Below are positions 9,911 to 60,830 of a stretch of DNA of 64,000 nucleotides, in pieces; position 1 is the first letter of the stretch; the number at the start of each line of letters is the position of its first letter. Position numbers and translations under genes: made by a program. The stretch is from assembly GCF_900101745.1 (NCBI RefSeq), contig NZ_FNAD01000008.1, forward strand, positions 186,001 through 250,000, written 5' to 3'. This DNA comes from Glycomyces harbinensis (GTDB lineage Bacteria > Actinomycetota > Actinomycetes > Mycobacteriales > Micromonosporaceae). Below the pieces are notes generated by a model that was not told the origin of the DNA, did not search any database, and worked only from the letters and a program-made list of their open reading frames with translations.

Positions 9911-10014
9911 TGGTCGAGTTGACAGGATTTGAACCTGCGACCCCCTCGTCCCGAACGAGGTGCCGCCGGCACGGAGTGCCGCCAAAAAGCACTGCCAAGC
10001 TGCGCCACAACCCG
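9911..10014 (-). tRNA. tRNA-Pro(CGG)-like gene with 27-nt insertion after the D arm
   Basis: Read on the minus strand, a 7-bp acceptor stem (one G-U pair), D arm (GCGC / GTGC stem, AGCTTGGCA loop), anticodon arm CCTCG-TTCGGGA-CGAGG (anticodon CGG), variable loop, T arm with TTCAAAT loop, discriminator A and CCA are all present. Between the D arm and the anticodon arm, where one nucleotide is normal, there are 28 nt (9961-9988) beginning with five T and able to form a CGGCAC-TCC-GTGCCG hairpin. Total length is 104 nt. It may be an inactive relic, or it may need processing. It lies only about 23 nt after another tRNA terminator. Confidence 0.6.
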
Positions 10015-10065: not shown

Positions 10066-10113
10066 TGTGGTCGGGTTGACAGGATTTGAACCTGCGACCC
10101 CCTCGTCCCGAAC
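10066..10113 (-). other. attL candidate: 3' half of tRNA-Pro(CGG)
   Basis: These 48 bp match 9909-9956 with a single mismatch. They comprise the anticodon-loop GTTCGGGA onward, anticodon 3' strand, T arm, acceptor 3' strand and CCA. The upstream 5' half of a tRNA is absent; identity stops inside the anticodon loop, a common crossover point for tyrosine integrases. The integrase gene starts 168 bp away. I infer that the element inserted in a minus-strand tRNA-Pro gene, leaving this 3' half on the chromosome side, and that an intact tRNA is rebuilt at the far right end, outside the window. Confidence 0.65.
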
Positions 10114-21947: not shown

Positions 21948-23602
21948 TGGGACCACCGGGCCTTGGGCAGACCGAACCCCAAGGGCAGGGCGGACATGGC
22001 GAAGCCGATGTCCTGCGTGTTCCACATCCGGTCGACCTCGATCCGGGCCGCGGCGGCATCGGCTTCGAGCGCGGCAGCGGCGTCTTCGAGTTCGCGGTGC
22101 GAAGCGTCGCTGGTGTCGTCGAAGTCGGTGACCGTAATGGTGATGAGTCCGGTGAAGCGGACGAGCCCGTGGCCGTTGGCGCGTTCGACGTCCTGCTGTG
22201 CGGCGCGGTCGAGGGCGGCTTGCTCGTGCTCGGGTACGATCTGCCCGGTCCGCTGGCGCATCCGCACGGCCACCGAGCGGGCGGTGCGCTCCTTCATGAC
22301 CTCTTTCTCGGCCTTTCGCGGGCCGAGCGGTTCGTGGTGCATGGAAAAGGTGCGCCGGTGCTGACCCTCGCCGAGGAGGGGCGCGAGCACTGTGGAGTAG
22401 GTGCGCGATCTCGGCCAGTCGTAGACCCAGTAGGTGATCGAGGCGGACCCGTCGTGGAGGTAGTAGCCGGGACGGGCCTCGGCCGAGGCCGGCCGTGCGA
22501 GGACCGGGTCGATCCCGGCGGGGAGGCCGCCCCTGTCGGCGGCTTCGCGGCGCTCGGCGAGTGAACGGGCCATGTTCGGGGTGAACGCGGAGCGCACGAC
22601 TTCGGCGAGCTCGCGCGGCTGGAGCCAGGACTGGACGGCCAGGTCGGCGCCGCCAATGGAGGCGGTGAGGGAGATGACGTGGCGGGCGAGTACGGCCGAG
22701 GCGGCGCGGGAGCCGCCGCCGGCGGATCGGATCGCGGAGGCCGCGCGTCGGGCGTCCATTGTGAAGGCCAGGAACGATTCCCGGCTGGAGGTCGCCAGCG
22801 TCGCCGTCGACAGCAGTCCCTCGGTGATGGCCTGGGTGACCTCAGGGGCTTGCGGGTCGGCGTGGTCGAGGTGCCAGCGGCGCAACGCGGCACCGGATTC
22901 GGGGAGCAGTCGCTGGAATGCCTGGACGCGGATGATCGGGTTGCCTTCGGTGCAGAGCCCGGCGAGGAGGCCGCCCCAGCCGGCGACGCGCTGTTCGCGC
23001 CGGTCGGTGTCAACCAGGCCGAGGCCGGGGTAGGTGATGCGGGCGACGGCGGTGAAGGTCTTGTCGATGCGGTGGTGGACGATCGCGATCGGCGTCCCAT
23101 CGGGGAACTCGTCCTCAAGGATCTCGATCGGCGCCAGCACCCCAGGAAGGTCGGCGCGCTTGCGCTTCGGCCCACGACCGAAGCCGTGTCCGCGTTCGTT
23201 TCCGTGCTGGGCAGTGATGGACTCCGGCTCCGGCTCCTCTTCTGCGGCTTCGGGTTCGAGGTCGGCGGTGTCGATGACCGGACTGGCGTCGGGAGCGAGC
23301 GCGCCGGAGGCGAACTTGTGGAAGTCGCGCCGCTTGCCAAGGTGGTAGGAGACCCACCCGGTGATCCACTCGTCGGCGGTGCGACCGCGCACCCGGAAGA
23401 AGACGAGCCCGACGGTGAGTGCGGCGATCGGCCACACGATGACTCCGAAGAGGAGGTCGGCGACGGTGAAGGGCCACACCGCGAGGAGGGAGGCGGCACC
23501 GAGCAGGAGGACTCGGGGTCCGGACATGCCGAACATGAAGGCGACGCGCTCGACTTGCCAGCCGAAATAGCTGCGTGCTTCGGGCTTGGTCTGCTCGCTC
23601 AT
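21944..23602 (-). CDS. SCO6880/PrgI-family type IV secretion protein
   Basis: Protein of 552 aa with a PrgI-like N-terminus: two hydrophobic helices at about 27-70, then an acidic linker. A VirB4-N-like domain follows (residues ~150-540) that corresponds to the non-ATPase half of VirB4, so it likely partners the adjacent ATPase. The SCO6880 family is a marker of T4SS-type conjugation in actinobacteria. The ATG overlaps the stop of the VirB6-like gene, and GGAGG precedes it. The C-terminus ends in a hydrophobic ALPLGFGLPKARWSQ tail, typical of the family. Confidence 0.85.
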   Translation of the reverse strand: MSEQTKPEARSYFGWQVERVAFMFGMSGPRVLLLGAASLLAVWPFTVADLLFGVIVWPIAALTVGLVFFRVRGRTADEWITGWVSYHLGKRRDFHKFASGALAPDASPVIDTADLEPEAAEEEPEPESITAQHGNERGHGFGRGPKRKRADLPGVLAPIEILEDEFPDGTPIAIVHHRIDKTFTAVARITYPGLGLVDTDRREQRVAGWGGLLAGLCTEGNPIIRVQAFQRLLPESGAALRRWHLDHADPQAPEVTQAITEGLLSTATLATSSRESFLAFTMDARRAASAIRSAGGGSRAASAVLARHVISLTASIGGADLAVQSWLQPRELAEVVRSAFTPNMARSLAERREAADRGGLPAGIDPVLARPASAEARPGYYLHDGSASITYWVYDWPRSRTYSTVLAPLLGEGQHRRTFSMHHEPLGPRKAEKEVMKERTARSVAVRMRQRTGQIVPEHEQAALDRAAQQDVERANGHGLVRFTGLITITVTDFDDTSDASHRELEDAAAALEADAAAARIEVDRMWNTQDIGFAMSALPLGFGLPKARWSQ

Positions 23603-25059
23603 CGGTTACCTCCGTGGTCGGTCGGGTTCGGGGGCGGGGGCTGGATCGGCGGTGGCGGGGGCGGCCCGCCCGTGTTGCCGTAGTCCGGAGGCGGCGGGAC
23701 CGCCTGCGGAGCCCCATGCCCGGGACGCGGCTCACCGTTCGTGTCCGGTCCCGGCGGCCGGGCGATGGACTGGTGGTAGCCGGGATAGCCGCCGGGCAGC
23801 GCATACGGGTTCGCCCCTTCGATCCCGGCGCGGGCCGCGGTCTGCTCCATCCGCTGGGTGAGGGAGTTCGCGCCCCGCTGGACCGCGCGCAGTGCCATCG
23901 CGGCACCGGCAACCCACGGCCCTGCTGCTCCGGCGGCCTTCATCGCTCCGCCACCGATCGCGCCGCTTTTGTTGCCCGCCATCGTCATGCGGCCGCCCAC
24001 GGCCGCCATCGTGCGGGCTTCGGCGGCCTGACCGAACTGGAGTGAGCTGGCGCTGCCACCCATCGCGGGAGCGGACTGCGCGCTGAGGAATCCGGCACCG
24101 GCTCCGGCGACCGCTGCGAGCCCCGTCCCGCCGCCGACGTGCGTAGAAGTGAACGTCATGAACCTCGCAAGCGCCGGCCACGCGAGCGCCGCGAGCAGGA
24201 TGACGAGCATGCCGCTCAACAAGGTGGCGATGTCGGTCGCGCCGGTGCCGTCTTCGGTTTCGGTCTCGCCGATGAGCGAGAAGCCCACCGCGAAGATAAT
24301 CGCGATCAGCGGCTTCATGATGATGAGCTGGATCGTGACGCTAACCAGCTTGTTCCACCACTGCTTGGTCGTGTGGGACATCTGGCCGACCGCAGCGATC
24401 GGCGACGTGGCGATCAGCACGGCCAGGGCGGCGTTGCGCAGGATCAGTTCACCCCACAGCACGAAGAGCAGCGCGATGCCGGCCAGCGAGATCAAGAAGA
24501 CCAGCGTGGCCGCGAGCTCGGGACTGGCTCCGAAGGCGAACAGGGCGGCGAGCTTGTCGCGGAGCTCGGCGTCACCGTCCTCGAAGGTGTAGTCGATGAT
24601 GCCGCTGGCGAGTTCGTCCGAGGCGACGAGCGCCATCGAACCGATCGTCAGGGTCGTCATGACTGCCAGGAGTGCTTTGCCAAGGCCCACAACGGCTTCG
24701 GCGAGCGGCCTGCCTTCAGCGGTCACGGCAGTGCGGATGATCTGGGTGAACATGATGAAGACCGAGACGATGGCCGCGATGCCCATACTGATGGCGTAGA
24801 CCTTGGAGATCCCGCCGCCGGCGAGATCAATGTTCGGGAACGCGACGAAGGCGTCCGCGAACCACTCCATCATCTGCATCATCCCGGCCGCGGCGTCGAG
24901 CGCGAGGTCGCCCATCACGGACTCACCGATCGAGCCGCCGACGGCATCGCCGGCCTCGTCGGCGGCGTCGGCGGCCAGTTGGTCGATCGCCCATTCGTTG
25001 ACTGGGCTGCAAAAAACGTAGTCGGATACCGCTGTGGGGTCGAATCCGTCATCGCACAT
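23599..25059 (-). CDS. VirB6/TrbL-like polytopic membrane protein
   Basis: Protein of 486 aa with an N-terminal segment containing Cys pairs (MCDDGF..VFCSP) and about six transmembrane helices between residues 85 and 320, matching the VirB6/TrbL inner-membrane channel component. The C-terminal third is Gly/Ala-rich and ends in a long Pro-rich tail, as in actinobacterial TrbL-like proteins. GGAG lies 7-8 nt before the ATG at 25059. It overlaps the SCO6880-type gene by 4 nt. Role inferred from topology and gene order. Confidence 0.82.
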   Translation of the reverse strand: MCDDGFDPTAVSDYVFCSPVNEWAIDQLAADAADEAGDAVGGSIGESVMGDLALDAAAGMMQMMEWFADAFVAFPNIDLAGGGISKVYAISMGIAAIVSVFIMFTQIIRTAVTAEGRPLAEAVVGLGKALLAVMTTLTIGSMALVASDELASGIIDYTFEDGDAELRDKLAALFAFGASPELAATLVFLISLAGIALLFVLWGELILRNAALAVLIATSPIAAVGQMSHTTKQWWNKLVSVTIQLIIMKPLIAIIFAVGFSLIGETETEDGTGATDIATLLSGMLVILLAALAWPALARFMTFTSTHVGGGTGLAAVAGAGAGFLSAQSAPAMGGSASSLQFGQAAEARTMAAVGGRMTMAGNKSGAIGGGAMKAAGAAGPWVAGAAMALRAVQRGANSLTQRMEQTAARAGIEGANPYALPGGYPGYHQSIARPPGPDTNGEPRPGHGAPQAVPPPPDYGNTGGPPPPPPIQPPPPNPTDHGGNR

Positions 25060-25105
25060 GGGAGGGCTCCTGGAGGTGGGTCTCAGGTTCAGGGTGAAAA
25101 GGAGG

Positions 25106-25855
25106 TCAGCGAGTGAGGAGGTACCAGCCGAGCTCAGTGGCTTCGAGCGAGCCGGGGTCGGCCACGAGCGCTTGGTAGTCGAGGTCGCCGAAGGGAAAGC
25201 CGTCGATCTTCCAGTCGCCCGACTCCCAGACCATGACCAGCGGCGTGACCACGGGCGAAGTCTGCGGGACACCGTCGTCGACGTAGACGGTCGCCTCGCC
25301 CAGCAGCAGGAGGTTCACACGGTCGGCCTCATAGCCGTAGGTCTGGTAGTTGGAGAAGGCCACGATCAGGTCGGTGCCCTCGGGGACCTCACCTTCGGCT
25401 GGAATCCCGATCGATTCGCGCGAATCGAGCGCCTTGGCCCGTAGCCCTTCAGCATCGAACTCGGCGAGCATCGACTCGGAGAACATCGCTGCGCCGAGCT
25501 CTTCGCCGCGGCCCGGGTCAAGGTTGCCGGAGTATGCCGACCAATACTCCACACCAGCGGAGACTGCACCGGCGAGGTCGTGGTCGAAGCCGGTCCACAT
25601 GCCCGACACGAGCTGCGTGCCAACGGTGTCGAGGACGAGCACCTCCGGTACGTCCTGGTCGGGGACGACCGGCCCTGTTTCGAAGCTGGGCTCCGCGGAT
25701 GTCGGGGATTCGCTCTCGGCTTTCGGGCTGTCGTCGTCGCGAGACTGGTGTGCGGCCAGGGCAACAGCTCCGCAGAGCCCCAGCACGAGCAGCACGGCGA
25801 GCGGCACGATGACGCGGCCCGATCGCGAGCGGGAAAGAAAGGCGTTGCGTCCCAT
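25106..25855 (-). CDS. VirB8/TcpC-like conjugation membrane protein
   Basis: Bitopic protein (249 aa): basic cytoplasmic N-terminus, one transmembrane helix at about 14-35, a Ser/Glu/Asp linker and a C-terminal alpha/beta domain of ~170 residues with a W..Y.G.. start and a VVTPLVMVWESGDWKIDGF core strand. This layout fits the VirB8/TcpC NTF2-like scaffold that bridges membrane and wall in T4SS channels. AGGAG precedes the ATG by 9 nt. It is second in the operon, after the VirB2-like gene. Confidence 0.75.
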   Translation of the reverse strand: MGRNAFLSRSRSGRVIVPLAVLLVLGLCGAVALAAHQSRDDDSPKAESESPTSAEPSFETGPVVPDQDVPEVLVLDTVGTQLVSGMWTGFDHDLAGAVSAGVEYWSAYSGNLDPGRGEELGAAMFSESMLAEFDAEGLRAKALDSRESIGIPAEGEVPEGTDLIVAFSNYQTYGYEADRVNLLLLGEATVYVDDGVPQTSPVVTPLVMVWESGDWKIDGFPFGDLDYQALVADPGSLEATELGWYLLTR

Positions 25856-26712: not shown

Positions 26713-27762
26713 ATGAACCCTCGCGCCCCGCTGGCCGCCTTGCTGGCCCTGCCGTTCGTCGCTGCTCTCGGGCTCCTTGTGCTCACAGCCGCGGCGAGCA
26801 CCCCTGAACTGTCCGAGGGCGGGTTTTACACCTGCCGGACCGAGGCGGAGGGATCATCCGCACTGATCGAGGCCACCGACCTCTCCGACGAGCAGATCCA
26901 GAACGCCGTCACGATCTACACCGTCGGCGCCGAACGCGGCCTGCCCGAGCAGGCGATGGTCGTCGCGCTCGCCACGGCGATGCAGGAATCCACGCTGAGG
27001 AATCTCGGCCACCTCGGCGACGCCAACGACCACGACTCCCTCGGCCTGTTCCAACAGCGGCCCTCATCGGGATGGGGAACCCCCGAGCAGATCCAGGACC
27101 CGGTCTACGCCTCCACCAAGTTCTACGACAAGCTCGAGACCATCGAAGGGTGGGAAGGCATGGCGGTCACCGACGCCGCGCAGGCCGTGCAGATATCGGC
27201 CTTCCCCGACGCCTATGCCAAGTGGGAACCGCTCGCACGGCTCGCCGTGGACCTGCTCGCGACCATTGTCGACTGCGAGACCGCCGACCTCCCTGAAGGC
27301 GCCTGGACCAACCCACTCCCGGGCGCACCCGTCGTCTCCGGCTACCGCACCGGCGACCGCCCCGACCACGACGGCCTCGACCTGTGGGCCGACCATGGCA
27401 CCCCGATCTATGCCGCCAGCGACGGCGCCGTCAACCGGGTCCGCTGCAACGCCACCCTCAACGGCGCCGACTACTCCTGCGATACCGATGGCTCCCCCGA
27501 GGTGATGGGCTGCGGGTGGTACATGCAGATCGCCCACCCTGATGGGACCTTGACCAGGTACTGCCACATGGTGAGCGAACCGCTCTTCGAGGTCGGCGAC
27601 ACCGTCGAGGCTGGCGACATCATTGGCTACGTCGGCAGCTCCGGCAACTCCTCCGGCCCCCACCTCCACCTCGAAACGCACACCAACCATGATGCCAACA
27701 GCTCCAATGCGACCGACCCTTACTCGTATTTCGCCGATCGCGGGATCAGCTTCTCCTCCTGA
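26713..27762 (+). CDS. Conjugation cell-wall hydrolase: lysozyme-like plus M23 peptidase
   Basis: Bifunctional wall-degrading protein (349 aa). An N-terminal membrane or signal segment lies at 8-28. A lysozyme-like domain follows (about 55-190) with probable catalytic Glu92 (AMQEST) and the SLGLFQQR signature. The C-terminal M23 endopeptidase has zinc/active-site residues His219, Asp223, His317 and His319 (HDGLD, HLHLE). It would cut peptidoglycan to let the T4SS channel through, like TcpG or VirB1-type proteins. It is transcribed away from the main operon. The ATG at 26713 lacks a strong Shine-Dalgarno. Confidence 0.9.
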   Translation: MNPRAPLAALLALPFVAALGLLVLTAAASTPELSEGGFYTCRTEAEGSSALIEATDLSDEQIQNAVTIYTVGAERGLPEQAMVVALATAMQESTLRNLGHLGDANDHDSLGLFQQRPSSGWGTPEQIQDPVYASTKFYDKLETIEGWEGMAVTDAAQAVQISAFPDAYAKWEPLARLAVDLLATIVDCETADLPEGAWTNPLPGAPVVSGYRTGDRPDHDGLDLWADHGTPIYAASDGAVNRVRCNATLNGADYSCDTDGSPEVMGCGWYMQIAHPDGTLTRYCHMVSEPLFEVGDTVEAGDIIGYVGSSGNSSGPHLHLETHTNHDANSSNATDPYSYFADRGISFSS

Positions 27763-33041: not shown

Positions 33042-34130
33042 CTAGTGCTCAGCAAGGTCTCGGGAAAGCTGCGCAACGGCAACATCGGCAATCAACTCCA
33101 ACCTCTCCCGCAATGCAGGTTCAGCGCCCTGTTCTAGTCCGGATCTATGCAGCACCTCAGCGAGATGAGCTGCACCTGCGGGGTCGATTGACCTCCGGAA
33201 CGTCGGACTTGAGAGAAGGTCTCGCGCAGCGTATGCGTCCCCGTCGCGCATCGCGATCGGCCCGAATGTCGCTGCCAGCTCCGACGCTGCGCGGCCGAGA
33301 CACGCAAGTTCGAGGACACTCAACCCGAGCCGGACCTGGAAGAGCTGTTGCTCCTGCGGCAGCGCCAAACCCACGATCTGGTCGATGAGGAGCCTGGATT
33401 TTGCGTCCGGCGAGTCACGGAGCGCGGCGCTACTGCACATCTCGAAGTATGTGATCAAGGCTTCTTCCCATGGTTCGATCACCTCGGTGCTTGCGATGAG
33501 TGCCTGCGTAGCGTCGGTCTCGTCGGCCGCGATGGTGGCGATGATCGCGGTTTGGCGGCCGTCAAGAAGTCGATTGCCGATACCGCTGCACCGTTCGGCG
33601 GCTTGCCGTGCCTCGGTCCACCGTCCTGCACGTGTCAACGCCCGGGCGCCGTCGGACAGGAACGCGATCCATAGCTTCTCCTGCATCGCATTGCGTCCAT
33701 GACGGTCTACAGCCATGGCAGCCACGTCGACTTCACGCTGGTCGATCCACGTGGAAATGTGATCGGTTGCAGCGGTCAGCGCCTGGTCGAGAATATGGTG
33801 CGCGCGGTCGCCGTCGCCCTCTCGAGTGGCGAGCCGGGCGAGATTGATTATCGGCTCCATCGCCAGCACCGCACGCTCGGCGTTGAGCGGTGCGTGCTTG
33901 GCGAAGACCAAGAACTGGTTCCAGCACAAGTCACGTGCGAGATCGTGGGCACCGATGTCACTGGTTATCAGTGCGGTCAGGTTGAGGGCCGCGGCGGCTT
34001 CGGTGGCGTTCCGGGCACGTTCGGCCATGGTCGAGACGGCGGCTATGCGCTTGTCGAGGGGTGCGCAAAGCGGTCTGGCCCTGGGTACGAGGGGGAACCA
34101 GGTCGCGAGCGCCTTCGGGAGCTCAGGCAT
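33042..34130 (-). CDS. Lanthipeptide-cluster-associated helical protein (362 aa)
   Basis: Helical protein, TPR-like in feel (repeated ~35-residue units such as AERCSGIGNRLLDGRQTAIIATIA), with no transmembrane segment and no catalytic motif. Its ATG at 34130 overlaps the end of the thiopeptide-type gene by 8 nt, so it is the last gene of the FxLD lanthipeptide operon. A role as a scaffold or cluster-specific accessory is likely from context only. The frame is open far upstream inside the previous gene, but that part is low-complexity and not coding. Confidence 0.65.
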   Translation of the reverse strand: MPELPKALATWFPLVPRARPLCAPLDKRIAAVSTMAERARNATEAAAALNLTALITSDIGAHDLARDLCWNQFLVFAKHAPLNAERAVLAMEPIINLARLATREGDGDRAHHILDQALTAATDHISTWIDQREVDVAAMAVDRHGRNAMQEKLWIAFLSDGARALTRAGRWTEARQAAERCSGIGNRLLDGRQTAIIATIAADETDATQALIASTEVIEPWEEALITYFEMCSSAALRDSPDAKSRLLIDQIVGLALPQEQQLFQVRLGLSVLELACLGRAASELAATFGPIAMRDGDAYAARDLLSSPTFRRSIDPAGAAHLAEVLHRSGLEQGAEPALRERLELIADVAVAQLSRDLAEH

Positions 34131-35007
34131 CGGGTTGGTTCCTTTCGGGCCGGCTTTGCCGGGTAGGTGCATGGGTCCGGGGGCTGGTGAAAACAGCGTC
34201 GCGCGCGGCCCGGGCGAGCGCCTGTTGATCGGGGATGGCAAGCCCGATTCGGTTCCAGGCGAAAAGAATGTGGTGGGCGAGGACGTCGCGGAGACCGCGT
34301 TCGAGGTGTCCTCGGTCGGCAAGGGAGCGCAGGGCAATGCCGGCGCTGCGGTACTCGGTGAGGGCTCCGGTGGCGTTGTAGGCAAGGGGGTCGGGGAGGC
34401 GGGTGAGGGTGGCGTCGGGGTCAGCGGTGAGCAGGTGCCAGGCAGTCTCGGCGGCCGAGTCAGGGTCAGCGGGCAAGTGCGGGTCGGTGCCGCGGATGTT
34501 CGCGAGGCGGGCCCAGATGTCGCCATGTTCGTACCATTCCTGGCCGGCGGCGCGGGTCATGGCGGTGCACAGCAGCAGCGAAAGCTCCCGTCGGCGATCG
34601 GTGCCGTGAGTGAGGTGCTGGTGAGTGAGGTACTCACCGACGAAGCCCGAGTCGTGGTTGAACAGGCGGTGTGCGATATCCATCGCCTGAAGCCCGCCGA
34701 AGGCCGCGACCTCGGGTTCGTATATCTGGTGGGTGACCTCGGCGAGGTAGGACCGGGATTGGGGCCCGCTAAGGATCTCGGTGACGAGGGCGCGAGCCCG
34801 CTCGGGTTCGACGCCCAGGGCTGCACGGTAGCGCAGTCGCCACCAAGGCGTCTTGCGGACGAAGAACCAGCCGCCGAGAACGTTGTCCTCGATGCCCGAC
34901 CAGATGGCGGGCCAGAGGATGTCGGCGCAGTAGCGTTCGGCGCGAGTCGGATCGACCAGGCGCACGTTGGTCTGAAGCCAGATGGCGGTCGGAGGTTGGC
35001 GGTCCAT
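34123..35007 (-). CDS. Thiopeptide-type (SpaB_C-like) bacteriocin biosynthesis protein
   Basis: Stand-alone member (294 aa) of the thiopeptide-type bacteriocin biosynthesis domain family, related to the elimination domain of LanB. It starts with the usual IWLQTNVRLVDPTRAERY strand-helix, has the FFVRKTPWWRLRYRA signature, and continues with EVTHQIYEPEVAAFGG and a helical C-terminal half. The start codon overlaps the LanC stop (TGATG). A full-length LanB is already encoded, so this second copy may tune glutamate elimination, act on a different residue, or assist leader recognition, as in FxLD-type clusters elsewhere. Confidence 0.85.
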   Translation of the reverse strand: MDRQPPTAIWLQTNVRLVDPTRAERYCADILWPAIWSGIEDNVLGGWFFVRKTPWWRLRYRAALGVEPERARALVTEILSGPQSRSYLAEVTHQIYEPEVAAFGGLQAMDIAHRLFNHDSGFVGEYLTHQHLTHGTDRRRELSLLLCTAMTRAAGQEWYEHGDIWARLANIRGTDPHLPADPDSAAETAWHLLTADPDATLTRLPDPLAYNATGALTEYRSAGIALRSLADRGHLERGLRDVLAHHILFAWNRIGLAIPDQQALARAARDAVFTSPRTHAPTRQSRPERNQPDA

Positions 35008-36230
35008 CAGCGGAGTACTTTCGGTGCGGCCAGTCCGAGGGCGGCGTCCCAGATGCTCTCGTCGGTGATCCGGGGACCAGCGGCTTGGAGGGTGAAGGCG
35101 AGTCCGACTTCGCCATCGAGGAACCCGTGCTCGGGGACGGGGCGGGCGGCCAGGTGCACCTCGAGATCGGCGAGCGCCGTGGTGAAGCGGTCGCCAGAAG
35201 CGTCTTCGGCGACGCGCTGGGTGATGCGGTAGAGCCCGGCGGTGCCGTGGCACAGACCGCCTTCGACCAGCAGGCTGGTCTGGTCGGCGTCATTCAGGCA
35301 GCGGGCCAGGGCGCCTTCGGCGGCGGCCTGACGGGCGGGGTCGTCGAGGGCGATGGCGGCCAGTTGGAGGGCGCGGACGATGCCGGGGGTGCCGTAGCAC
35401 CAGCTCGGGCGTCCCGGGCGGGGTTGAGAGGCGCGGCCCCGGTCGAGATCCTCGCGTGTGAGCCATTGGGGCCACCAGCCGGCCTCGTGCTGCCAGGTGT
35501 CGTAGAAGCGGCAGATCCACTCGATCGCGTCGCGCTGGCCGGGGACGCGCAGGTTCGCGTTGTAGGCCAGGGCGAGGGCCGTCAAGGGTCCGGGGATGCC
35601 GTGTGCGGCACCCATGTTGAGGTGCCCGCCGGGGAACTCGGGCGACTGCTTGAGGAAGGGGTCGTGGTCAGCCCACCAGCCCGGCATCCACGTTCGGCCG
35701 ATACGGATCGGTTTGGTCAGGGTGACCAGGAAGGTGAGGACGTCGCCGGTGAGGTCGCTGCCAGGCTCGGTGGCGAGCAGGTAGGTGGCGAGGCCACTGA
35801 GTCCCGATAGTTGGCTGTACTCGGCAAATCCGGTGGGGCGCTGGTGGTGGAGGCGTTCGCGCGCCAATGCGAGTCGTCCGGTGGTGATGGCCTGGACTTG
35901 TTCGTGGAGGCGAGCGCGCAGATGGTCGTAGCGGGATGGGGCATCGGTGGCGTGGAGGACGAACGCAATCGCGGGGGCCCCGTTGAAAAGATTGGTAGCG
36001 GTGGTGCTGTTGACATTCGGGTGGGCGACGGCGCGCAGCCAGGCGCGGGCGGTGGCGGCATCCCCGAGCCCGAGGCGGATGCGTTCGAAGTGCAGCAGCA
36101 CGCCGCCGAGGGCCCCTGCACCCAGCGATTGCGCGCCGATATTCGGACGGAACCCGGCGGTCCCCGGCTTCGTCAGTCGATGAGCGATCCGCTCGGCCGC
36201 GGCGGTCCCAGCGTTGGTGGTGCTGTTCAT
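35007..36230 (-). CDS. LanC-like lanthionine cyclase
   Basis: Cyclase (407 aa) that adds cysteine thiols to dehydroamino acids to make (methyl)lanthionine rings. Zinc ligands are visible as Cys278 (SWCYGTPG), Cys327 and His328 (GLCHGTAG). The upstream catalytic-region motif GAAHGIPG has His210. Length and motif order match LanC. AAGGAG lies 7 nt before the ATG at 36230, which overlaps the LanB stop (ATGA). It acts on the 52-aa FxLD precursor encoded just upstream. Confidence 0.93.
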   Translation of the reverse strand: MNSTTNAGTAAAERIAHRLTKPGTAGFRPNIGAQSLGAGALGGVLLHFERIRLGLGDAATARAWLRAVAHPNVNSTTATNLFNGAPAIAFVLHATDAPSRYDHLRARLHEQVQAITTGRLALARERLHHQRPTGFAEYSQLSGLSGLATYLLATEPGSDLTGDVLTFLVTLTKPIRIGRTWMPGWWADHDPFLKQSPEFPGGHLNMGAAHGIPGPLTALALAYNANLRVPGQRDAIEWICRFYDTWQHEAGWWPQWLTREDLDRGRASQPRPGRPSWCYGTPGIVRALQLAAIALDDPARQAAAEGALARCLNDADQTSLLVEGGLCHGTAGLYRITQRVAEDASGDRFTTALADLEVHLAARPVPEHGFLDGEVGLAFTLQAAGPRITDESIWDAALGLAAPKVLR

Positions 36231-39200
36231 GATGGGCTCCTTCGGTTGCGGGAGTGCCAAGCGAGCGCGGCGGTGCGGGCGAGTTTGAGGGCAGCCTGCT
36301 CGCTGCCGGGGTCGATGCCCACGGCCCGGATGTGGTGGAGGTGCAGCAGCGCGGAGAGCACCGGATCGGTCGGATGCTCGGCAGCGGCGAGCGCGGACCG
36401 GTAGCGGCCGACCGCGCCAGCCCGCCGCGTCCAGGCGTCGACCACGGCCGAGCCGGAGGGTGAGTCGGTCAGAAGCGTTCGCCCTGATGCATGGGGGTCG
36501 AGGAGGCCGGCGAGGGCGGTGACTGCGGTACGGTCCAATGGTGGGCCGGTGCGGTCGACGTGTTCGAGGAGCCAGCGCATCCCGGCGTCAACGGAGCCGG
36601 TGAAGGCAACCGTCAGGTCGATGAGGCTGGCTGCGAGCAGCGGCTGCGCCAGCTTAACCGCGGCGGCGGTGTGGCGGAGTTGGGCGAGTGCGGTGATCGA
36701 GTCGGCGGCGAAGGACTCCTCGGCGGCGGCCATCGCCGGGCCGTGCCCGTACCGGCCGGTCTCGGGGATGTAGGTGTCGAGCTGGAGGCCGCCGATCAGG
36801 CTGCGCTGCCGCAGATCTTGGGCCCAGGCGCCGAGGTGCTCGGTGGCGGCCCCGTATCCGGTGGCCGGAGTCAGGCGGAAGCGCACGCGCAGGTGTGGGA
36901 GGGGGTCGAGGTAGCGGATGAACCACCAGTCCAGTCCGGTCTCGGCGGCGAATCGGGCCACGTGGTCGGTGAGGAGGCTACTCATCCGTTCAGGGTGGGT
37001 GTAGACCTTGGCGTAGAGCCAGGTTCCCGTTCCGGGCAGGTGCTCATCCTTCATCGTGAAGGGCTGCGGAAGTCTCGGTGCGCACTCGCGCTGGGATGCC
37101 GGCGTGGTGGTGGCGAGGGGAAGAGTGATCTCGTGGGCCCGCCCGTCGATCCAGCCGAAGTCCTCTCGGCTGGGGGCCTCGCGCACGATGACCAATGGGT
37201 GCCGGTCGAGTTCGCGGCGCAGCAGGGCCTGGTGCGCGGGGTCGGTGGTGTTGATGCGGATGCGGACGTCGCTCTCACCCAGATACACCAGGTCCGGTAT
37301 CTGGAGCTCCCCGCGGAGCTCCTGCCACGCCGCTTTCCACTCGGGCCAGGGCCGCTCTCGGTCGGGAAGCTGCTCGGCGCGGATCTTCCAACGGGCGGTG
37401 ACGAGGATGGAGCGTCCCAGCCGGATCTGGGGAAGAACAGGCAGAGCGCTCGCGGTTCCCCAGTCGAACTTCGTGTAGACCGAGGCGCGGGCACGCGACA
37501 GCTCGGCGAGGAAGCGCTGAACCGGGTGCATCCTGGAAATCGGCTCAACGGCGTTGGGCACCATCGGCTCGACGATCGAACCGTCGGTGAGGTCGATGAA
37601 GAACAGGCGCACGGTGTCGGCTGAGACGGCGAGGTCGTCCAGATTGACAGGGTTCGCGCTCGGCGGCGGGTATTCCCCAAGCGCCAGGAACTCGCCGATG
37701 ACCTGCGGAACACGTGCAACGTTCTCGGTCGAGGTGAACAAGGGCGGCGCTGACACCTGCACGCGCCTTGCGCTCGCAATCGTGGTCGGCAGGTGCTCCC
37801 AGACCTGAACGATGCGGTCGCGGTCTGCCTGGTCGAGCAGGTGCAGGACCCGGCCTTCGGTGGTGCCGACGGCGCGGCTGGCGCCTTCGATGCTGAGCGT
37901 GAACCGTCCAGCGGCAACCGATTCGAGGTCGGCGGCGCGCAAGTGAAAGGTGATGCCGACATGCGGTGGCGGGGTGATCGTCTCGGTGGCGATCTGGTCG
38001 AGAGCACCGTCGGCCAGGTCGATCTCGCGGCCCGTGCGGATTGCCTCGGTCGCGAGAGCGATCAGCGCCCGGTCGCGGTCGGTCAATACCGTCACCGGTT
38101 GCGGGAGCAACGAATCGCGGAACCCCGCTGGAAAGCCTTGTCCTGCAACCGGATCGATCACCTCTCTTACCGGTACCGCCGCGCCCAGGCCGTAGCGTTC
38201 GAGGAACCGGTGGTGGTAGTCCGCCCACGCCCCGAACCCACTTGGGAAGGGGGTCAGGCGCAGTAGGGCGTCGGCCGCGTGTTCGGCCTCGGCAATCACG
38301 TCCGGCGGCAGTGCCACGTTCAGGTCCAAGGCGAGATCGACCGCTAGTGCCGGACGGTCACCTTCCTGGCCGACGATGCGAGTGGCTTCGCGGAGGGTCG
38401 CGCGCTGTTCGGCGTCCCCTCGGGCCGCGGCGACGGCTTGAAGGGCCTGCTGTCCGTCGCAGAGCATCTGTTGTCGGATTTCGTGACCGGATTGAGCTAG
38501 CTCATCAGCGATGAAACCGAGCGGATCGGTCTCGCTCATCGGCGGTTGCAGCCGAGTCAGAAGCACCCCTTGGCCGACCAGTGCCCGCAGCATGGCCTCG
38601 ACCGTCGTTTCCGGGGTGGTCGGGAACTCGGCGGTGAGCTTCGCGGCCAGGTCGGCGTACCGGATCGGAGCAGACGCGAGCCGTTGAACCGCCGCGGTGG
38701 CCGGGGTGTGGCGCAGTGAGACGGCGGCCGAGCCGAGTTCGTTGTGTTCGGCTTGGCCCAGCACCACCAGGCGTCCGCCTTGAGCTGAGGCGAGATTGTT
38801 GAACAGGACCGTCATGTCACGGAGAAGGCTGTGCAAAATCGGGATGGTCGCTCGGCGCAGCCGCAGCGCTTCCGGTCGTGCGAGGGCGCGATGCTGCGCA
38901 CCGCTCACCACCTCCGGCGAATCAGCGAAGCGGACCGGGGCGACCCCGGCGAATAGTCCGAACGGTGTTGCGCGTGATTCGAAGCGCAGGTCGTAGCGCA
39001 AGATGGCGAATGCAACCCGCCGGATCTGCGCGGCATCGACCACCCGACCGGCCAGGACCGCTTCGATCCGTTCCGCGAGCGCGGGCGAGGCGGTCTCGAT
39101 CGCCTCGGCGAATGCGGCGTCGCACCAGGCCAACCTGATCCATTCGCGCTGCGCCGCAGCCGAGGTGTCGTCAGTGCGGTCGGGTGTGGGCAGGGGCGGG

Positions 39201-39265
39201 AGCGGTGAGGCGCCCGCGCGGGCGGTCGCACGGATGAGGCCAGCGTCGAGAGCTCGGAACATCAT
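36227..39265 (-). CDS. LanB lanthipeptide dehydratase (full length)
   Basis: Class I lanthipeptide dehydratase (1012 aa). The N-terminal Lant_dehydr region (about 1-700) starts with FRALDAGLIRATARAG and includes FESRATPFGLFAGV. It glutamylates Ser/Thr using Glu-tRNA. From about residue 740 a SpaB_C/thiopeptide-type domain (GTWLYAKVYTHPE..., WWFIRYLDPLPHLRVRFRL) performs glutamate elimination. Two tandem ATG codons (39265 and 39262) follow AAGGAG; spacing favours the second, but both give essentially the same protein. It follows the precursor gene by 76 bp, with a hairpin between them. Confidence 0.93.
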   Translation of the reverse strand: MMFRALDAGLIRATARAGASPLPPLPTPDRTDDTSAAAQREWIRLAWCDAAFAEAIETASPALAERIEAVLAGRVVDAAQIRRVAFAILRYDLRFESRATPFGLFAGVAPVRFADSPEVVSGAQHRALARPEALRLRRATIPILHSLLRDMTVLFNNLASAQGGRLVVLGQAEHNELGSAAVSLRHTPATAAVQRLASAPIRYADLAAKLTAEFPTTPETTVEAMLRALVGQGVLLTRLQPPMSETDPLGFIADELAQSGHEIRQQMLCDGQQALQAVAAARGDAEQRATLREATRIVGQEGDRPALAVDLALDLNVALPPDVIAEAEHAADALLRLTPFPSGFGAWADYHHRFLERYGLGAAVPVREVIDPVAGQGFPAGFRDSLLPQPVTVLTDRDRALIALATEAIRTGREIDLADGALDQIATETITPPPHVGITFHLRAADLESVAAGRFTLSIEGASRAVGTTEGRVLHLLDQADRDRIVQVWEHLPTTIASARRVQVSAPPLFTSTENVARVPQVIGEFLALGEYPPPSANPVNLDDLAVSADTVRLFFIDLTDGSIVEPMVPNAVEPISRMHPVQRFLAELSRARASVYTKFDWGTASALPVLPQIRLGRSILVTARWKIRAEQLPDRERPWPEWKAAWQELRGELQIPDLVYLGESDVRIRINTTDPAHQALLRRELDRHPLVIVREAPSREDFGWIDGRAHEITLPLATTTPASQRECAPRLPQPFTMKDEHLPGTGTWLYAKVYTHPERMSSLLTDHVARFAAETGLDWWFIRYLDPLPHLRVRFRLTPATGYGAATEHLGAWAQDLRQRSLIGGLQLDTYIPETGRYGHGPAMAAAEESFAADSITALAQLRHTAAAVKLAQPLLAASLIDLTVAFTGSVDAGMRWLLEHVDRTGPPLDRTAVTALAGLLDPHASGRTLLTDSPSGSAVVDAWTRRAGAVGRYRSALAAAEHPTDPVLSALLHLHHIRAVGIDPGSEQAALKLARTAALAWHSRNRRSPS

Positions 39266-39297
39266 GCTGCTCCTTGGAAGCGAGGTCGGGGCGGGGT

Positions 39298-39333
39298 GGG
39301 CCGGTACCGACAGGGAGGCTGCGGTACCGGCCC
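39298..39333 (-). terminator. Hairpin attenuator between precursor and LanB genes
   Basis: Perfect 12-bp stem (39298-39309 with 39322-39333, arms GGGCCGGTACCG) and 12-nt loop, starting 8 nt after the precursor stop. No T tract follows, so a partial terminator or mRNA-stabilising hairpin is likely, as is usual after lanthipeptide precursor genes. Confidence 0.75.
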
Positions 39334-39341
39334 GGTGTGCG

Positions 39342-39500
39342 CTAGGGGCAGGAGTTGCAGGCGCTCTGGCAGGTCTGCCCGCAGTTGTCGCCGGTGTCGT
39401 AGAGGATCGTCTGGAGGTCACCGGACTCGATGAACTGGATGTCGAGTTCGAAGGCGTCGTCGTCGGCCTCGACGATGGGCGGCTGTGTCTGGGTGCTCAT
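39342..39500 (-). CDS. FxLD-family lanthipeptide precursor (52 aa)
   Basis: Short precursor peptide with the family-defining FELD at residues 17-20 (FxLD motif, inside AFELDIQF) in an acidic leader. The C-terminal core has Cys at 40, 44, 48 and 51 and Ser/Thr at 31, 36, 43, 46 and 50, allowing up to four (methyl)lanthionine rings. AAGGA lies about 8 nt before the ATG. The gene sits between the methyltransferase (26 nt upstream) and LanB, the typical FxLD cluster order. The leader cleavage point is not obvious; no GG or AlaXaa site is seen, and no dedicated protease or ABC exporter is in the cluster. Confidence 0.92.
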   Translation of the reverse strand: MSTQTQPPIVEADDDAFELDIQFIESGDLQTILYDTGDNCGQTCQSACNSCP

Positions 39501-39526
39501 GTCACTTCCTTGTTCTCGGTTTGCGG

Positions 39527-40798
39527 TTACTGCACCTGGTCCGTGCGACCGGGGATCGGGGACCAGGAGACGGTGATGCGGCTGTGCCGCTTCTCGGCGA
39601 CCAGGCCCGACGGCAGGTCGCCGTCGGGGGCGGTCTTGGGGTGGACCTCGACATGCGGGCCGGGCCCGCGGCGCTGGTCGCGGTCCCAGCTGCGGGTGTG
39701 CTGCACGATGCGATCGGCGAGTTCTCTGGCGTTGGGGCCGTGGGCGAGGGCCCCGAACTCGAAGACGGTGCGGTCCTCATCGAGTGGTCGCAAGGTGAGG
39801 TAGGCGAGGGAGTCACGGTCCCAGATGGCCGCCATGCCCCAGCGCAACGAGAGCTTCACCAGCTCCGAGGCAAGGCCAGCGTCGGTGGCGGTGAGGTACC
39901 CGAAGGTGGGGGCGACGGTGGCAAGCCACAGGTCGAGGTCGTCCCACGGCTCCATTCCACCGACCTGGACGCCCGACCACGCCTCGTGGCGCGGCTGCTC
40001 CAGCGCCCGCCGCAGCGCGAGGACTTCGACCGGCTGGCGGTCGTCGATCCCCAGCGCGATGTCCTCCTTGTACAGGGCGACCTGCCGGAGTCGGTTCTCC
40101 CCGACGCCCTGCATGGGAACGAATCCGCACAGTTCGATGTCGGTGGACACCAGCCGGTTGCCTTCGCGTTTGAACACGAAGCTGCGTTCGAGGCCGCGAA
40201 TGCGCAACGGGACGATCAATCGGCCGTCCTCGGTGAGCTGATCGATCCACGCCGGGGGGATGTCCGGGGCGCCGACGGTGACCAGGATGCGGTCGAACGG
40301 CCCGTACTGCTCGGCGCCGAACTCGCCATCGGCCTGCACGACGGTGACCACGTCGTCGTATCCGGCGTCGATCAGGCCCTGTTCGGCGCGTTCGATGACG
40401 TCAGGGTCGATGTCGAGCGTGACGACCGTGCCGGTAGGGCCGACGAGTTCGGCGATCAGGGCCGCGTTGTAGCCACCGCTGCCGATTTCCAGCACCTTCA
40501 TACCGGGACGGAGCTGCGCCTGCTGGAGCATCGCCGCCTGGAGCCAGGGCGCCGACACTGAGCTGATCGACACGCCGTGCGCATCGCGCTGCATGATCGG
40601 CGAGGTGTTGGCGTACGCCTCCTCCAGCGTCAGTCCGGGCGTGAAGGCGTGCCGCGGCACCGTCCGCACCGCCTCGAGGATCGCGTCGTCGACCGACCGG
40701 CCCACCTCGGAGCGGCTCTGGACGATCACGTCGGCCAGGCGGCGTCGCAGCCTTGGCGCTTCGGTCTCTTCATCGGTCATTGTGGGTTCGGTGCTCAC
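39527..40798 (-). CDS. FxLD-system methyltransferase (PIMT-like)
   Basis: Methyltransferase of 423 aa, homologous to protein-L-isoaspartate O-methyltransferase over residues ~15-230, with motif I VLEIGSGGY at 102-110 and the SAPWLQAAML substrate-helix segment at 82-91. A C-terminal extension of ~190 residues is characteristic of the FxLD-system enzymes. Known LanS_A-type relatives methylate an Asp in the lanthipeptide, which collapses through a succinimide to isoaspartate. Candidate residues in the precursor are Asp28, Asp35 and Asp38. The GTG start has GGAGGA just upstream. It is the first gene of the operon. Confidence 0.9.
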   Translation of the reverse strand: MSTEPTMTDEETEAPRLRRRLADVIVQSRSEVGRSVDDAILEAVRTVPRHAFTPGLTLEEAYANTSPIMQRDAHGVSISSVSAPWLQAAMLQQAQLRPGMKVLEIGSGGYNAALIAELVGPTGTVVTLDIDPDVIERAEQGLIDAGYDDVVTVVQADGEFGAEQYGPFDRILVTVGAPDIPPAWIDQLTEDGRLIVPLRIRGLERSFVFKREGNRLVSTDIELCGFVPMQGVGENRLRQVALYKEDIALGIDDRQPVEVLALRRALEQPRHEAWSGVQVGGMEPWDDLDLWLATVAPTFGYLTATDAGLASELVKLSLRWGMAAIWDRDSLAYLTLRPLDEDRTVFEFGALAHGPNARELADRIVQHTRSWDRDQRRGPGPHVEVHPKTAPDGDLPSGLVAEKRHSRITVSWSPIPGRTDQVQ

Positions 40799-41051
40799 AG
40801 TTCCTCCAGTTGCTGGTGGTCATCGGTCGTTCTGGGATCATGCATTCCTGGGCGAGCCCGCGGCGGGAAGCGCTACCGCTCACCTCTTATTAAGGGGGCA
40901 CTGCGGTGCGGAGGCGAGAGCATCGCCCGCGCGCTCTCCGCCCGGAAGGCGCGCATTTCCCGCGCATCCCATGCACGACAGGGCCAGGACGCGCGTTCGG
41001 GCCGAGACCGGGATAAACTGGAAGATCATCCGCACCCCCGGAGACACCGCC
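40799..41051. promoter_or_regulatory. Divergent promoter region of the lanthipeptide cluster
   Basis: A 253-bp non-coding gap separates the divergent methyltransferase and regulator genes. It contains an AT-rich CTTATTAAGG segment near 40887-40896 facing the operon and a GATAAACT near 41011-41018 facing the regulator. It is the obvious operator site for that regulator. Confidence 0.5.
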
Positions 41052-42233
41052 ATGACGCGACGACGCAGACGCCTGCAACAGCGCCGCAAGGAGATCGGGC
41101 TCAGCCAGGAACAGCTCGCCGCCGCCTGCGGCGTCAGCGACTCGACGGTGCGCCGCTGGGAATCCGGAGAGACGGAGCCACAGCCGCGCCAACGGCGCCT
41201 GCTCGCCCTTGCCCTCGACCTCTCCCCGACCGAGCTGACCCGCCTGCTCGACGCCGACGACCTCTCGCTGGATCGTGCAGTGGGCCGGTTTGCGGGATAT
41301 GATCCGACGCCTATGGACTCCGAGCCCGGAACCGACGCCGTCCGCGACGCCCTGGAGTGGATTCTCGACCCGACCGGGCCGCTCCACTCCCTCGCCGCTG
41401 CACCCGGACGCACCCGCCGCGTCGGCACCGCTCTGATCGACCAAGTTGCCGACCGGATCATCCGATTCAGGCGCGCTGACGACACCGTGGCGGCCCGTCG
41501 CTTGCTCCCCGAAGTCGTCGGCGAGGTCCACCGCGTCGAGACCGTCCTGTCTCATCACTCTTACAACGACGCCACCGGGCGCCGCCTGCACGGGATGCTC
41601 GCCGAACTCCACCAGCTCGCCGGGTGGATGGCGATCGACCTGGGCCGCGTAACTCGCGGCGAGGAGTTCTACGCCGCCGGAGCTGCCGCGGCCCGCTCCG
41701 CCGGCGACAGTGCACTCGTCGCACAGCTCTTGTCGTGCAACGCCTACCAGCGCACCAGCCGCGGCAAGGACGCACTGCTGCTGGCCCGTGCTGCGCTCCA
41801 CGGCGGCAGCTCGGCCCTGACCCCCCTCGGGCGTATCCTGCTGATCGAACGCATCGCCTGGGCCGCCGCCAACACAGGGCACGACGACCTCGCCCGGTCG
41901 GCCCTGCACGAGGTCGACGACACTTACGCGCTTGTGGGAGACGAACCGGAGCCGGACTGGGTGTATTGGCTCGACCGCAACGAGAGCGATGTCATGGCTG
42001 CCCGCTGCCTCCTCATTCTCGGCGATCCCGACCACGCCGCCGCACTTCTTCGCCCCGCGATCGACCGCTACCCGGCCAGTCACCGGCGCGAGAAGGCGCT
42101 TTACCTCTCGTGGCTCGCCGAGTCCTACACCGCCACAGGCGAACAGGATGCCGCGACAGCGGTCATCGGCGAGATCGAAGACCTCGAGGTTGACTCCGCC
42201 CGCCTCCAAAGCCGCCTTGCACTCCTGCAATAG
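41052..42233 (+). CDS. HTH/TPR transcriptional regulator of the lanthipeptide cluster
   Basis: Regulator (393 aa) with an N-terminal XRE helix-turn-helix at about 5-65 (RRKEIGLSQEQLAAACGVSDSTVRRWESGETEP) and a TPR-like helical C-terminal part of about 300 residues, the layout of many actinobacterial signalling regulators that bind a small peptide or ligand. The ATG at 41052 has GGAGA upstream. It faces away from the lanthipeptide operon across a 253-bp gap, so it is the likely cluster-specific regulator. The ligand is unknown; the modified peptide itself is one possibility. Confidence 0.85.
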   Translation: MTRRRRRLQQRRKEIGLSQEQLAAACGVSDSTVRRWESGETEPQPRQRRLLALALDLSPTELTRLLDADDLSLDRAVGRFAGYDPTPMDSEPGTDAVRDALEWILDPTGPLHSLAAAPGRTRRVGTALIDQVADRIIRFRRADDTVAARRLLPEVVGEVHRVETVLSHHSYNDATGRRLHGMLAELHQLAGWMAIDLGRVTRGEEFYAAGAAAARSAGDSALVAQLLSCNAYQRTSRGKDALLLARAALHGGSSALTPLGRILLIERIAWAAANTGHDDLARSALHEVDDTYALVGDEPEPDWVYWLDRNESDVMAARCLLILGDPDHAAALLRPAIDRYPASHRREKALYLSWLAESYTATGEQDAATAVIGEIEDLEVDSARLQSRLALLQ

Positions 42234-59715: not shown

Positions 59716-59726
59716 CCACTCTCCGC

Positions 59727-59748
59727 GGGGCGGCCACCAGGCCGCCCC
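59727..59748 (+). terminator. Hairpin after ssb
   Basis: Perfect 9-bp stem (59727-59735 with 59740-59748), loop ACCA. No T tract. Confidence 0.6.
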
Positions 59749-59790
59749 GCCCCTCACCTGACTCCCGCAACAAACTCTTTGGAGTACGCC

Positions 59791-60759: not shown

Positions 60760-60773
60760 CCCGAATCGAAACA

Positions 60774-60805: not shown

Positions 60806-60830
60806 CGTTCTCGTTCCGATGGAGGTTGCC

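What the first reader, a model, noticed from the sequence alone, without database searches (positions are those of the whole stretch)
33042..42233. Complete FxLD-type lanthipeptide cluster carried as ICE cargo
The 52-aa precursor has the FxLD motif and four C-terminal Cys. Around it are a PIMT-like methyltransferase, full-length LanB, LanC, a second SpaB_C-type protein, a helical protein and a divergent HTH/TPR regulator. All seven lie between the T4SS genes and the relaxase, so the cluster should move by conjugation. No exporter, leader protease or immunity gene is recognised within it.
Basis: partly seen in the sequence, partly recalled or inferred. Interest (0 to 1): 0.75.

Follow-up and report, generated by a model that had tools for sequence, protein, structure and literature searches.

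The report
Conjugative element carrying an FxLD lanthipeptide cluster
A mobile DNA element in a soil bacterium, probably a Glycomyces, carries a complete gene set for a ring-containing peptide that probably stays inside the cell and may protect it against viruses, and related elements often carry such gene sets too.

Summary
Window 33042-42233 holds a complete FxLD class I lanthipeptide cluster: precursor, PIMT-type methyltransferase, LanB, LanC, free LanB_C-like protein, TPR protein and divergent NsdA-family regulator. It lies between the T4SS genes and TrwC relaxase of an ICE inserted in tRNA-Pro; the right end is on another contig. The genus, inferred from contig matches, is Glycomyces.

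The biosynthetic type is known (LanSA, "lanthimiditide"). What I add:
(1) Of 13 genomes (151 searched) with a VirB4-like ATPase at least 65% identical, 7 have an FxLD methyltransferase within 45 kb (0.23 expected), each beside LanB and LanC. Class III synthetases, the control, are that near in 0 of 13. The LanBs are scattered on the LanB tree, so clusters were acquired more than once.
(2) Exporters are rare: an ABC-ATPase motif lies within 10 kb in 3 of 80 LanB loci.
(3) A Streptomyces counterpart of the lan-cvn8 locus, source of the published anti-phage "lanthiphage_Sco", is an FxLD cluster with the same components.
(4) The TPR protein is a frequent component with no NCBIfam family.

Best explanation: an ICE-borne intracellular lanthipeptide, probably for phage defence (inferred, not shown).

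The parts
9914..10014 (-). tRNA-Pro-like gene with an internal insert, next to the insertion site
   Evidence: Rfam RF00005 41.6 bits; ARAGORN missed it
10074..10113 (-). left attachment site: displaced 3' half of tRNA-Pro(CGG)
   Evidence: exact 40-mer also in the intact tRNA-Pro at G000:C17:22173 and in the tRNA of relatives
10281..11786 (+). tyrosine integrase of the ICE
   Evidence: PF00589 67.5 bits
18608..20422 (-). T4SS coupling protein (TraG/VirD4 type)
   Evidence: PF02534 84.7 bits, PF12696 81.7 bits
20442..22025 (-). VirB4-like ATPase (marker used for the ICE family); only weak Pfam AAA hits, all below cut-off
23599..25272 (-). VirB6/TrbL-like membrane protein
   Evidence: PF04610 21.8 bits, below its cut-off of 25.9
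26713..27762 (+). M23 peptidase of the conjugation module
   Evidence: PF01551 76.6 bits
33042..34130 (-). TPR-superhelix protein, last gene of the operon, no NCBIfam family and only weak Pfam TPR hits
34123..35007 (-). free LanB elimination-domain-like protein
   Evidence: TIGR03891/PF14028; fold of LanB lyase domains and pyridine synthases; Ala where NisB has R826
35007..36230 (-). LanC cyclase
   Evidence: PF05147 121.1 bits
36227..39265 (-). full-length LanB dehydratase
   Evidence: PF04738 and PF14028; MibB homologue E 1.1e-83
39342..39500 (-). FxLD precursor peptide, 52 aa, ring motif T36-G-D38-N-C40
   Evidence: TIGR04363 53.4 bits
39527..40798 (-). PIMT-type methyltransferase (LanSA; NCBI name fxlM)
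   Evidence: TIGR04364 486.6 bits; gene name from plasmid annotations
41052..42233 (+). NsdA-family HTH-TPR regulator, divergent
   Evidence: NF053720 211.2 bits; start
62268..64000 (+). MobF (TrwC) relaxase, runs past the window end
   Evidence: PF08751 288.3 bits

Best explanation
A tRNA-Pro-integrated ICE carries a complete FxLD (LanSA) class I lanthipeptide operon as cargo. Shown from sequence: the gene set, the ICE modules, the insertion site, the recurrence of FxLD clusters near the T4SS of this ICE family, and the scarcity of exporter motifs. Inferred: LanB dehydrates Ser/Thr of the core and LanC closes thioether rings, one of them T36-C40 around D38. LanSA then methylates D38, giving an aspartimide or isoaspartate. 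The free LanB_C-like protein adds a further change or helps elimination, and the TPR protein binds the peptide. The product stays in the cytoplasm. Its most likely role is phage defence, like the published lanthiphages; the ICE spreads it together with other likely defence genes (Tmn-like, type I-E CRISPR-Cas).
For: Profiles; ring motif with the conserved Asp. Att site and empty site; syntenic ICEs with exact repeats. Association: 7 of 13 genomes, expected 0.23, P 2.5e-10; LanB and LanC beside the methyltransferase in all 7; control 0 of 13. ABC-ATPase motif within 10 kb in 3 of 80 loci, none in the window. Lanthiphage link: papers describe intracellular anti-phage LanBC lanthipeptides of Actinomycetota (passages). 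lanthiphage_Sco comes from the lan cluster beside cvn8, with precursors of 43 and 59 aa. L090 has a conservon, then FxLD precursors of 43 and 59 aa, LanB, LanC, LanB_C-methyltransferase fusion and TPR protein. Other defence genes in the same ICE.
Against: No activity was measured. The lanthiphage preprint is not held, so its family definition was not checked. L090 as counterpart of the S. coelicolor locus rests on gene order, precursor lengths, a GTPase motif and reading by eye, not on the S. coelicolor sequence; the two S. coelicolor precursors are 97% identical, those of L090 clearly less so, and L090 has a third precursor-like frame. L090 and the window are not close (37% LanB identity; separate subclades). 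By one review only 8.8% of the lanthipeptide clusters examined lie in defence islands. PADLOC has no hit for the lanthipeptide enzymes beyond a mad2 match of the methyltransferase (60.8 bits). Protease and exporter could be encoded elsewhere. The 13 genomes share genera, and the 45 kb limit was chosen after seeing the data. ICE ends were found only for G017, G002 and, across a contig gap, the window.
Confidence: 0.55

Rival explanations
1. A secreted antibacterial lantibiotic: the leader is removed and the peptide exported by enzymes encoded elsewhere in the host genome, and the ICE gains from killing competitors.
For: Unclustered lanthipeptide proteases are reported (title and abstract start of PMC8960859 in the listing). 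Four Cys and five Ser/Thr after residue 30. The nisin cluster on a conjugative transposon is a precedent (passages of PMC12715929).
Against: No exporter or subtilase motif in the window; 3 of 80 related loci have an ABC-ATPase motif within 10 kb; no immunity gene was recognised.
Confidence: 0.25
2. A peptide signal: the lanthipeptide is sensed by the TPR protein and controls transfer or host regulation, by analogy with Rap/NprR peptide receptors.
For: The AlphaFold model of the TPR protein (mean pLDDT 94.3) has RapI and NprR among its top structural neighbours (Z 13.5 and 13.4); one listed Rap entry is a conjugation regulator (pLS20). Divergent NsdA-family regulator.
Against: Z near 13 is common for helical repeats, and LGN scores 13.4 too. 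Of 50 loci with the TPR gene, 47 show no conjugation hit in the fetched flank, so it is not ICE-specific.
Confidence: 0.1
3. A silent passenger with no current function.
For: Pseudogenes are frequent among the cargo of AICEs of Streptomyces (abstract passage of PMC9513070).
Against: All seven frames are open and full length with plausible starts. The G017 relative keeps LanB, LanC, LanB_C-like protein and methyltransferase at 71-77% identity.
Confidence: 0.1

Closest known systems
OlvA / OlvSA lanthipeptide (LanSA, 'lanthimiditide'; class I families I 1-4)
   Same: LanB, LanC, PIMT-type methyltransferase and a conserved Asp in a T-x-D-x-C type core, where Asn after the Asp is also known (passages of PMC7268733, PMC13001092, PMC10787088)
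   Different: This cluster is on an ICE and has a free LanB_C-like protein and a TPR protein; whether the olv cluster has these two was not checked. A full LanB plus a second elimination-domain homologue is itself reported (PMC7268733)
lanthiphage_Sco (S. coelicolor lan cluster beside cvn8)
   Same: L090, taken as its syntenic counterpart, has FxLD precursors, LanB, LanC, LanB_C-like domain, methyltransferase and TPR protein; anti-phage lanthipeptides act inside the cell according to PMC12360287 (passage)
   Different: In L090 the methyltransferase is fused to the LanB_C-like domain and lies downstream, here it is separate and upstream; LanB 37% identical; a conservon lies beside L090, an NsdA-type regulator beside this cluster
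Nisin conjugative transposon
   Same: Class I lanthipeptide cluster carried by a conjugative element together with a phage-defence system (passage of PMC12715929)
   Different: Nisin is a secreted antibiotic of lactococci (recalled); this cluster has no recognised exporter, protease or immunity gene and sits in an actinobacterial ICE

Membership tests
FxLD class I lanthipeptide system (TIGR04363/TIGR04364) | precursor over the curated cut-off | tested here: met
   53.4 bits against 30
FxLD class I lanthipeptide system (TIGR04363/TIGR04364) | FxLD methyltransferase over the curated cut-off | tested here: met
   486.6 bits against 320; the model alone overcalls, see the C13 copy without LanB in 20 kb
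FxLD class I lanthipeptide system (TIGR04363/TIGR04364) | full-length LanB and LanC | tested here: met
FxLD class I lanthipeptide system (TIGR04363/TIGR04364) | conserved core Asp in T-x-D-x-C | tested here: met
   T36-G-D38-N-C40; 42 of 44 candidate precursors show [ST]xDxC, but candidates were partly chosen by a D-x-C motif
FxLD class I lanthipeptide system (TIGR04363/TIGR04364) | thioether rings and isoAsp or aspartimide in the product | not testable with these tools
   needs mass spectrometry
lanthiphage (anti-phage lanthipeptide) | LanBC-type class I cluster in an actinobacterium | tested here: met
   genus inferred from contig matches
lanthiphage (anti-phage lanthipeptide) | same components as lanthiphage_Sco | tested here: inconclusive
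   shared with L090, taken as its counterpart by synteny; the S. coelicolor sequence itself was not available
lanthiphage (anti-phage lanthipeptide) | intracellular product, no exporter | tested here: inconclusive
   no ABC or subtilase motif in the window; location of the product not measured
lanthiphage (anti-phage lanthipeptide) | located in a defence island | tested here: inconclusive
   Tmn-like gene about 17 kb away and type I-E cas genes beyond the relaxase
lanthiphage (anti-phage lanthipeptide) | protects against phage | not testable with these tools
   needs infection assays
T4SS-type ICE | integrase, coupling protein, VirB4-like ATPase and relaxase | tested here: met
   the VirB4 call rests on weak AAA hits and homology
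T4SS-type ICE | flanking direct repeats at a tRNA | tested here: met
   exact 40-mer at both chromosomal junctions, on contigs C12 and C17, empty site in G018; two relatives have 45 and 47 bp repeats on one contig
T4SS-type ICE | excision and transfer | not testable with these tools
   needs mating assays

The most novel reading that the evidence does not exclude
One actinobacterial ICE lineage uses a cargo slot beside its conjugation genes to collect and exchange distantly related FxLD lanthipeptide operons, so that intracellular anti-phage peptides spread by conjugation. The free LanB_C-like enzyme and the unnamed TPR protein are conserved parts of this immune system rather than accessories of an antibiotic pathway.
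Probability: 0.35. Interest if true: 0.75.

Novelty: new variant of a known kind. Interest (0 to 1): 0.55.

Why it matters
The four largest class I lanthipeptide families, all from Actinobacteria and linked to this methyltransferase, were said in 2020 to have no characterised member, and the mature product of the one partly studied was unknown (PMC7268733, passages). If their products are intracellular phage-defence peptides, often carried by ICEs, the question of what they do becomes testable in laboratory Streptomyces. It would also explain why these clusters lack exporter and immunity genes, and it points to two conserved proteins (free LanB_C-like and TPR) whose roles are open.

Tried and rejected
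Fixed chromosomal cluster: rejected; 6 of 22 genomes have it, in differing contexts.

Second FxLD methyltransferase in the own genome (C13:8103) as a second lanthipeptide cluster: rejected; no LanB hit in C13:1-20000, and all 22 genus genomes have a methyltransferase over the cut-off.

A repeat search for the right end of the ICE on contig C12 found none; it was found on C17. The length of the ICE is therefore not known.

The first ABC scan used a Walker A pattern that excluded Pro; corrected, with the same count. The control for ABC density is weak, because several control pieces are orthologous loci. Many of the 80 loci have less than 10 kb of flank.

Solved-structure search for the TPR protein gave nothing below E 0.7; no NCBIfam hit in 39 members and only weak Pfam hits; Foldseek had no match at E <= 0.001.

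The regulatory reading of the TPR protein is kept as a rival only, because such Z-scores are common for helical repeats.

Among VirB4-like matches below 65% identity I fetched only G080 (30%): its methyltransferase lies about 10 kb away but no LanB was found in the 20 kb fetched. The rest of that class was not examined for clusters.

Literature limits: the lanthiphage preprint is not held. PMC6135851 lists SCO6928 in a table of genes whose heading I did not see; I do not use it as evidence. A listing of four papers for Glycomyces and lanthipeptide was seen by title and abstract start only. Whether FxLD clusters on ICEs are already in print was searched only (six and four papers listed; passages read of PMC12715929 and PMC9513070).
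Full report
Observation. NCBIfam and Pfam place the precursor (TIGR04363, 53.4 bits), the methyltransferase (TIGR04364, 486.6 bits), a full-length LanB, LanC, a free LanB_C-like protein (TIGR03891) and an NsdA-family regulator over their cut-offs; the helical protein reaches none. Gene starts were refined: TPR protein 33042-34130, LanB_C-like 34123-35007, LanC 35007-36230, LanB 36227-39265, precursor 39342-39500, methyltransferase 39527-40798 (all minus strand), regulator 41052-42233 (plus). Overlaps of 1-8 bases from LanB to the TPR gene suggest translational coupling.

Precursor. Residues 17-20 are the FELD motif. After it come Ser/Thr at 26, 31, 36, 43, 46 and 50 and Cys at 40, 44, 48 and 51. 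T36-G37-D38-N39-C40 matches the T-x-D-x-C motif of PIMT-linked lanthipeptides (passages of PMC13001092 and PMC10787088). In the six close relatives the core reads (I/V)LYDTSD(G/N)CGxTCxSACxSC, and in the window ILYDTGDNC followed by the same pattern. Of 44 candidate precursors from 42 loci (window included), 42 hold [ST]xDxC; candidates were partly chosen by a D-x-C motif, so this count is not independent.

ICE. Integrase, coupling protein, VirB4-like ATPase, VirB6-like protein and M23 peptidase lie left of the cluster and a TrwC relaxase right of it. Rfam finds tRNA-Pro at 9914-10014. A partial copy at 10074-10113 lies before the integrase. The exact 40-mer recurs at G000:C17:22173 inside an intact tRNA-Pro(CGG), and the sequence after it matches, at about 88-92% identity from the first base, the sequence after tRNA-Pro in G006, G008, G009 and G018. 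The window's left flank matches the other side of that tRNA: in G018 the match ends 231 bases before the 40-mer; in G009, G006 and G008 about 2, 4 and 12 kb of other sequence lie between, in G008 including an 84% match to the window's integrase. The ICE is therefore inserted in tRNA-Pro. Its right part runs off contig C12 (window coordinate 78763), so its length is open. G017 and G002 carry the same backbone between exact repeats of 45 and 47 bp, 66.5 and 77.0 kb apart; the G017 repeat lies in a tRNA-Met, and the G002 repeat is the same sequence. G017 has the six-gene operon in the same slot (methyltransferase 77%, LanB 71%, LanC 75%, LanB_C-like 72%, precursor 73%, TPR 53%), but not an orthologous regulator next to it (nearest NsdA relative 29%). 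G002 has no LanB; its slot holds other genes.

Distribution in the genus. LanB of the window type (at least 50% identity) occurs in 6 of 22 genomes and the coupling protein in 5 of 22; both occur in G000 and G017. G021 has the related T4SS with a different FxLD cluster next to the same HTH gene (LanB 30%, methyltransferase 43%). G012 has a second, distantly related T4SS beside its cluster and G001 has homologues of it about 23 kb away. G009 has a serine recombinase near its cluster. In G014 no T4SS was recognised in 67 kb.

Recurrence on the ICE family. In 151 genomes (window genome plus 150 relatives), 13 have a VirB4-like match of at least 65% identity; the next are at 40-41%. Of these 13, 7 (G000, G017, G021, G027, G046, G066, G086) have a TIGR04364 match over the cut-off within 45 kb, against 0.23 expected for random placement (P 2.5e-10). 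LanB and LanC lie beside the methyltransferase in all 7; G066 has no LanB_C-like or TPR hit, and no precursor was found in G046 by my motif. The six others (G002, G019, G031, G033, G037, G048) have no such match within 45 kb. In G000, G017, G021, G046, G066 and G086 the cluster is on the M23-peptidase side of the T4SS; in G027 it is 33-43 kb from VirB4 and the M23 gene was not seen. Class III synthetases, as control, occur in 11 of the 13 genomes and within 45 kb of VirB4 in none. The limit of 45 kb was set after seeing the positions, the genomes share genera, and ICE ends were determined only for G017, G002 and the window, so P is a guide and 'ICE-borne' for the other four or five means near the T4SS. 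A Streptacidiphilus locus (L135), found independently, has a cluster about 4 kb from this T4SS, on its coupling-protein side (VirB4 808 bits). On the LanB tree the eight T4SS-linked LanBs (G027 as L133) need five changes of state, with 7.8 on average and none of 500 shuffles as low: they are somewhat clustered but not one clade, so clusters were acquired more than once. Three of the eight have long branches of unsure place.

Components. Among 80 named actinobacterial LanB relatives (184 found, best 80 kept), 70 have LanC, 67 the methyltransferase, 62 a LanB_C-like protein, 50 the TPR protein and 17 an NsdA-like regulator; loci cut by contig ends count as misses. The methyltransferase is fused to the LanB_C-like domain in 15 loci, all with the TPR protein; of 52 with a separate methyltransferase 32 have it. 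FxLD methyltransferase relatives also occur on plasmids: 54 of 456 matching records have one place covering at least 80% of the query. The TPR model is confident (pLDDT 94.3) and a TPR superhelix; Rap/NprR and LGN are equal neighbours. None of 39 members hits NCBIfam, and at most 8 hit any one Pfam TPR model at E 0.01. The free LanB_C-like model matches LanB lyase domains (MadB Z 20.1, MibB 18.9, NisB 18.9) and pyridine synthases (PbtD 17.8, TbtD 17.0). It keeps the two Arg and the Glu of the NisB lyase site but has an invariant Ala in 28 of 28 where NisB has R826 (NisB residue roles and numbers recalled). This agrees with the suggestion in PMC7268733 that such proteins may do something other than elimination (passage).

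Function. A motif scan found no ABC ATPase or subtilase in the window, and an ABC-ATPase motif within 10 kb in 3 of 80 loci (0.18 per 100 kb against 1.68 in a small, partly redundant control). Papers describe lanthiphages: class I LanBC peptides found only in Actinomycetota, near other defence systems in 8.8% of cases, active inside the cell, blocking late phage transcription, with no obvious antibiotic activity (passages of PMC12715929 and PMC12360287). The S. coelicolor one is the lan cluster beside cvn8 (PMC13343842), with precursors of 43 and 59 aa that are 97% identical (PMC3091789; PMC8510531). L090 (Streptomyces sp. CCM_MD2014) has a conservon GTPase by motif and, by eye, the other conservon genes and a GAF-like protein; then three precursor-like frames, among them FxLD precursors of 43 aa (my choice of start) and 59 aa, then LanB, LanC, LanB_C-methyltransferase fusion and TPR protein. 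Two other loci of 80 (L120, L127) show the GTPase motif too. I infer that lanthiphage_Sco is an FxLD system. The window's ICE also carries a Tmn-like gene and type I-E cas genes. The most likely role is therefore an intracellular defence peptide; no step of this was measured.

Noticed in passing
G000:C12:255712-264539 (L015, right of the window): Type I-E CRISPR genes (Cas3, Cse1, a Cas6e-like protein, Cas1) right of the relaxase; related genes lie between integrase and T4SS in G019.
   Followed up: partly
window 12577-16272: Large YobI-type P-loop NTPase that matches the PADLOC Tmn model (170 bits, N-terminal ATPase part only); low GC for this window.
   Followed up: partly
G000:C13:8103-9266: Methyltransferase over the TIGR04364 cut-off with no LanB in 20 kb; all 22 genus genomes have a methyltransferase over the cut-off, and the locus is conserved in the four compared. 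The NCBI model overcalls FxLD systems.
   Followed up: partly
window 9914-10014: tRNA-Pro-like copy with, by eye, an insert of about 26 bases before the anticodon arm, beside the att site; perhaps a trace of an earlier insertion.
   Followed up: no
G017:C6:56515-58248 (L028): Second PCMT-type methyltransferase in the G017 ICE, fused to an ASCH domain, with no second LanB match in that genome.
   Followed up: no
G002:C22:476729-489295: Cargo slot of the FxLD-free ICE holds IclR, sulfotransferase, APH-like and CdiA_C-like genes; homologues of the sulfotransferase lie near the G001 and G021 FxLD clusters.
   Followed up: no
G001:C18:16710-25931, G012:C41:197575-207746, G014:C46:44220-54407: A conserved module with a T2SSE-type ATPase (seen in G001) and a LysM-BTAD protein (seen in G012, G014) near three window-type FxLD clusters outside the window's ICE type.
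   Followed up: no
G000:C16:218950-231945: Two further LanB relatives (29-30% identity) in the own genome.
   Followed up: no
G000:C21:119212-121244: Second copy (85% DNA identity) of the ICE segment at window 58974-61000, perhaps a remnant of another element.
   Followed up: no
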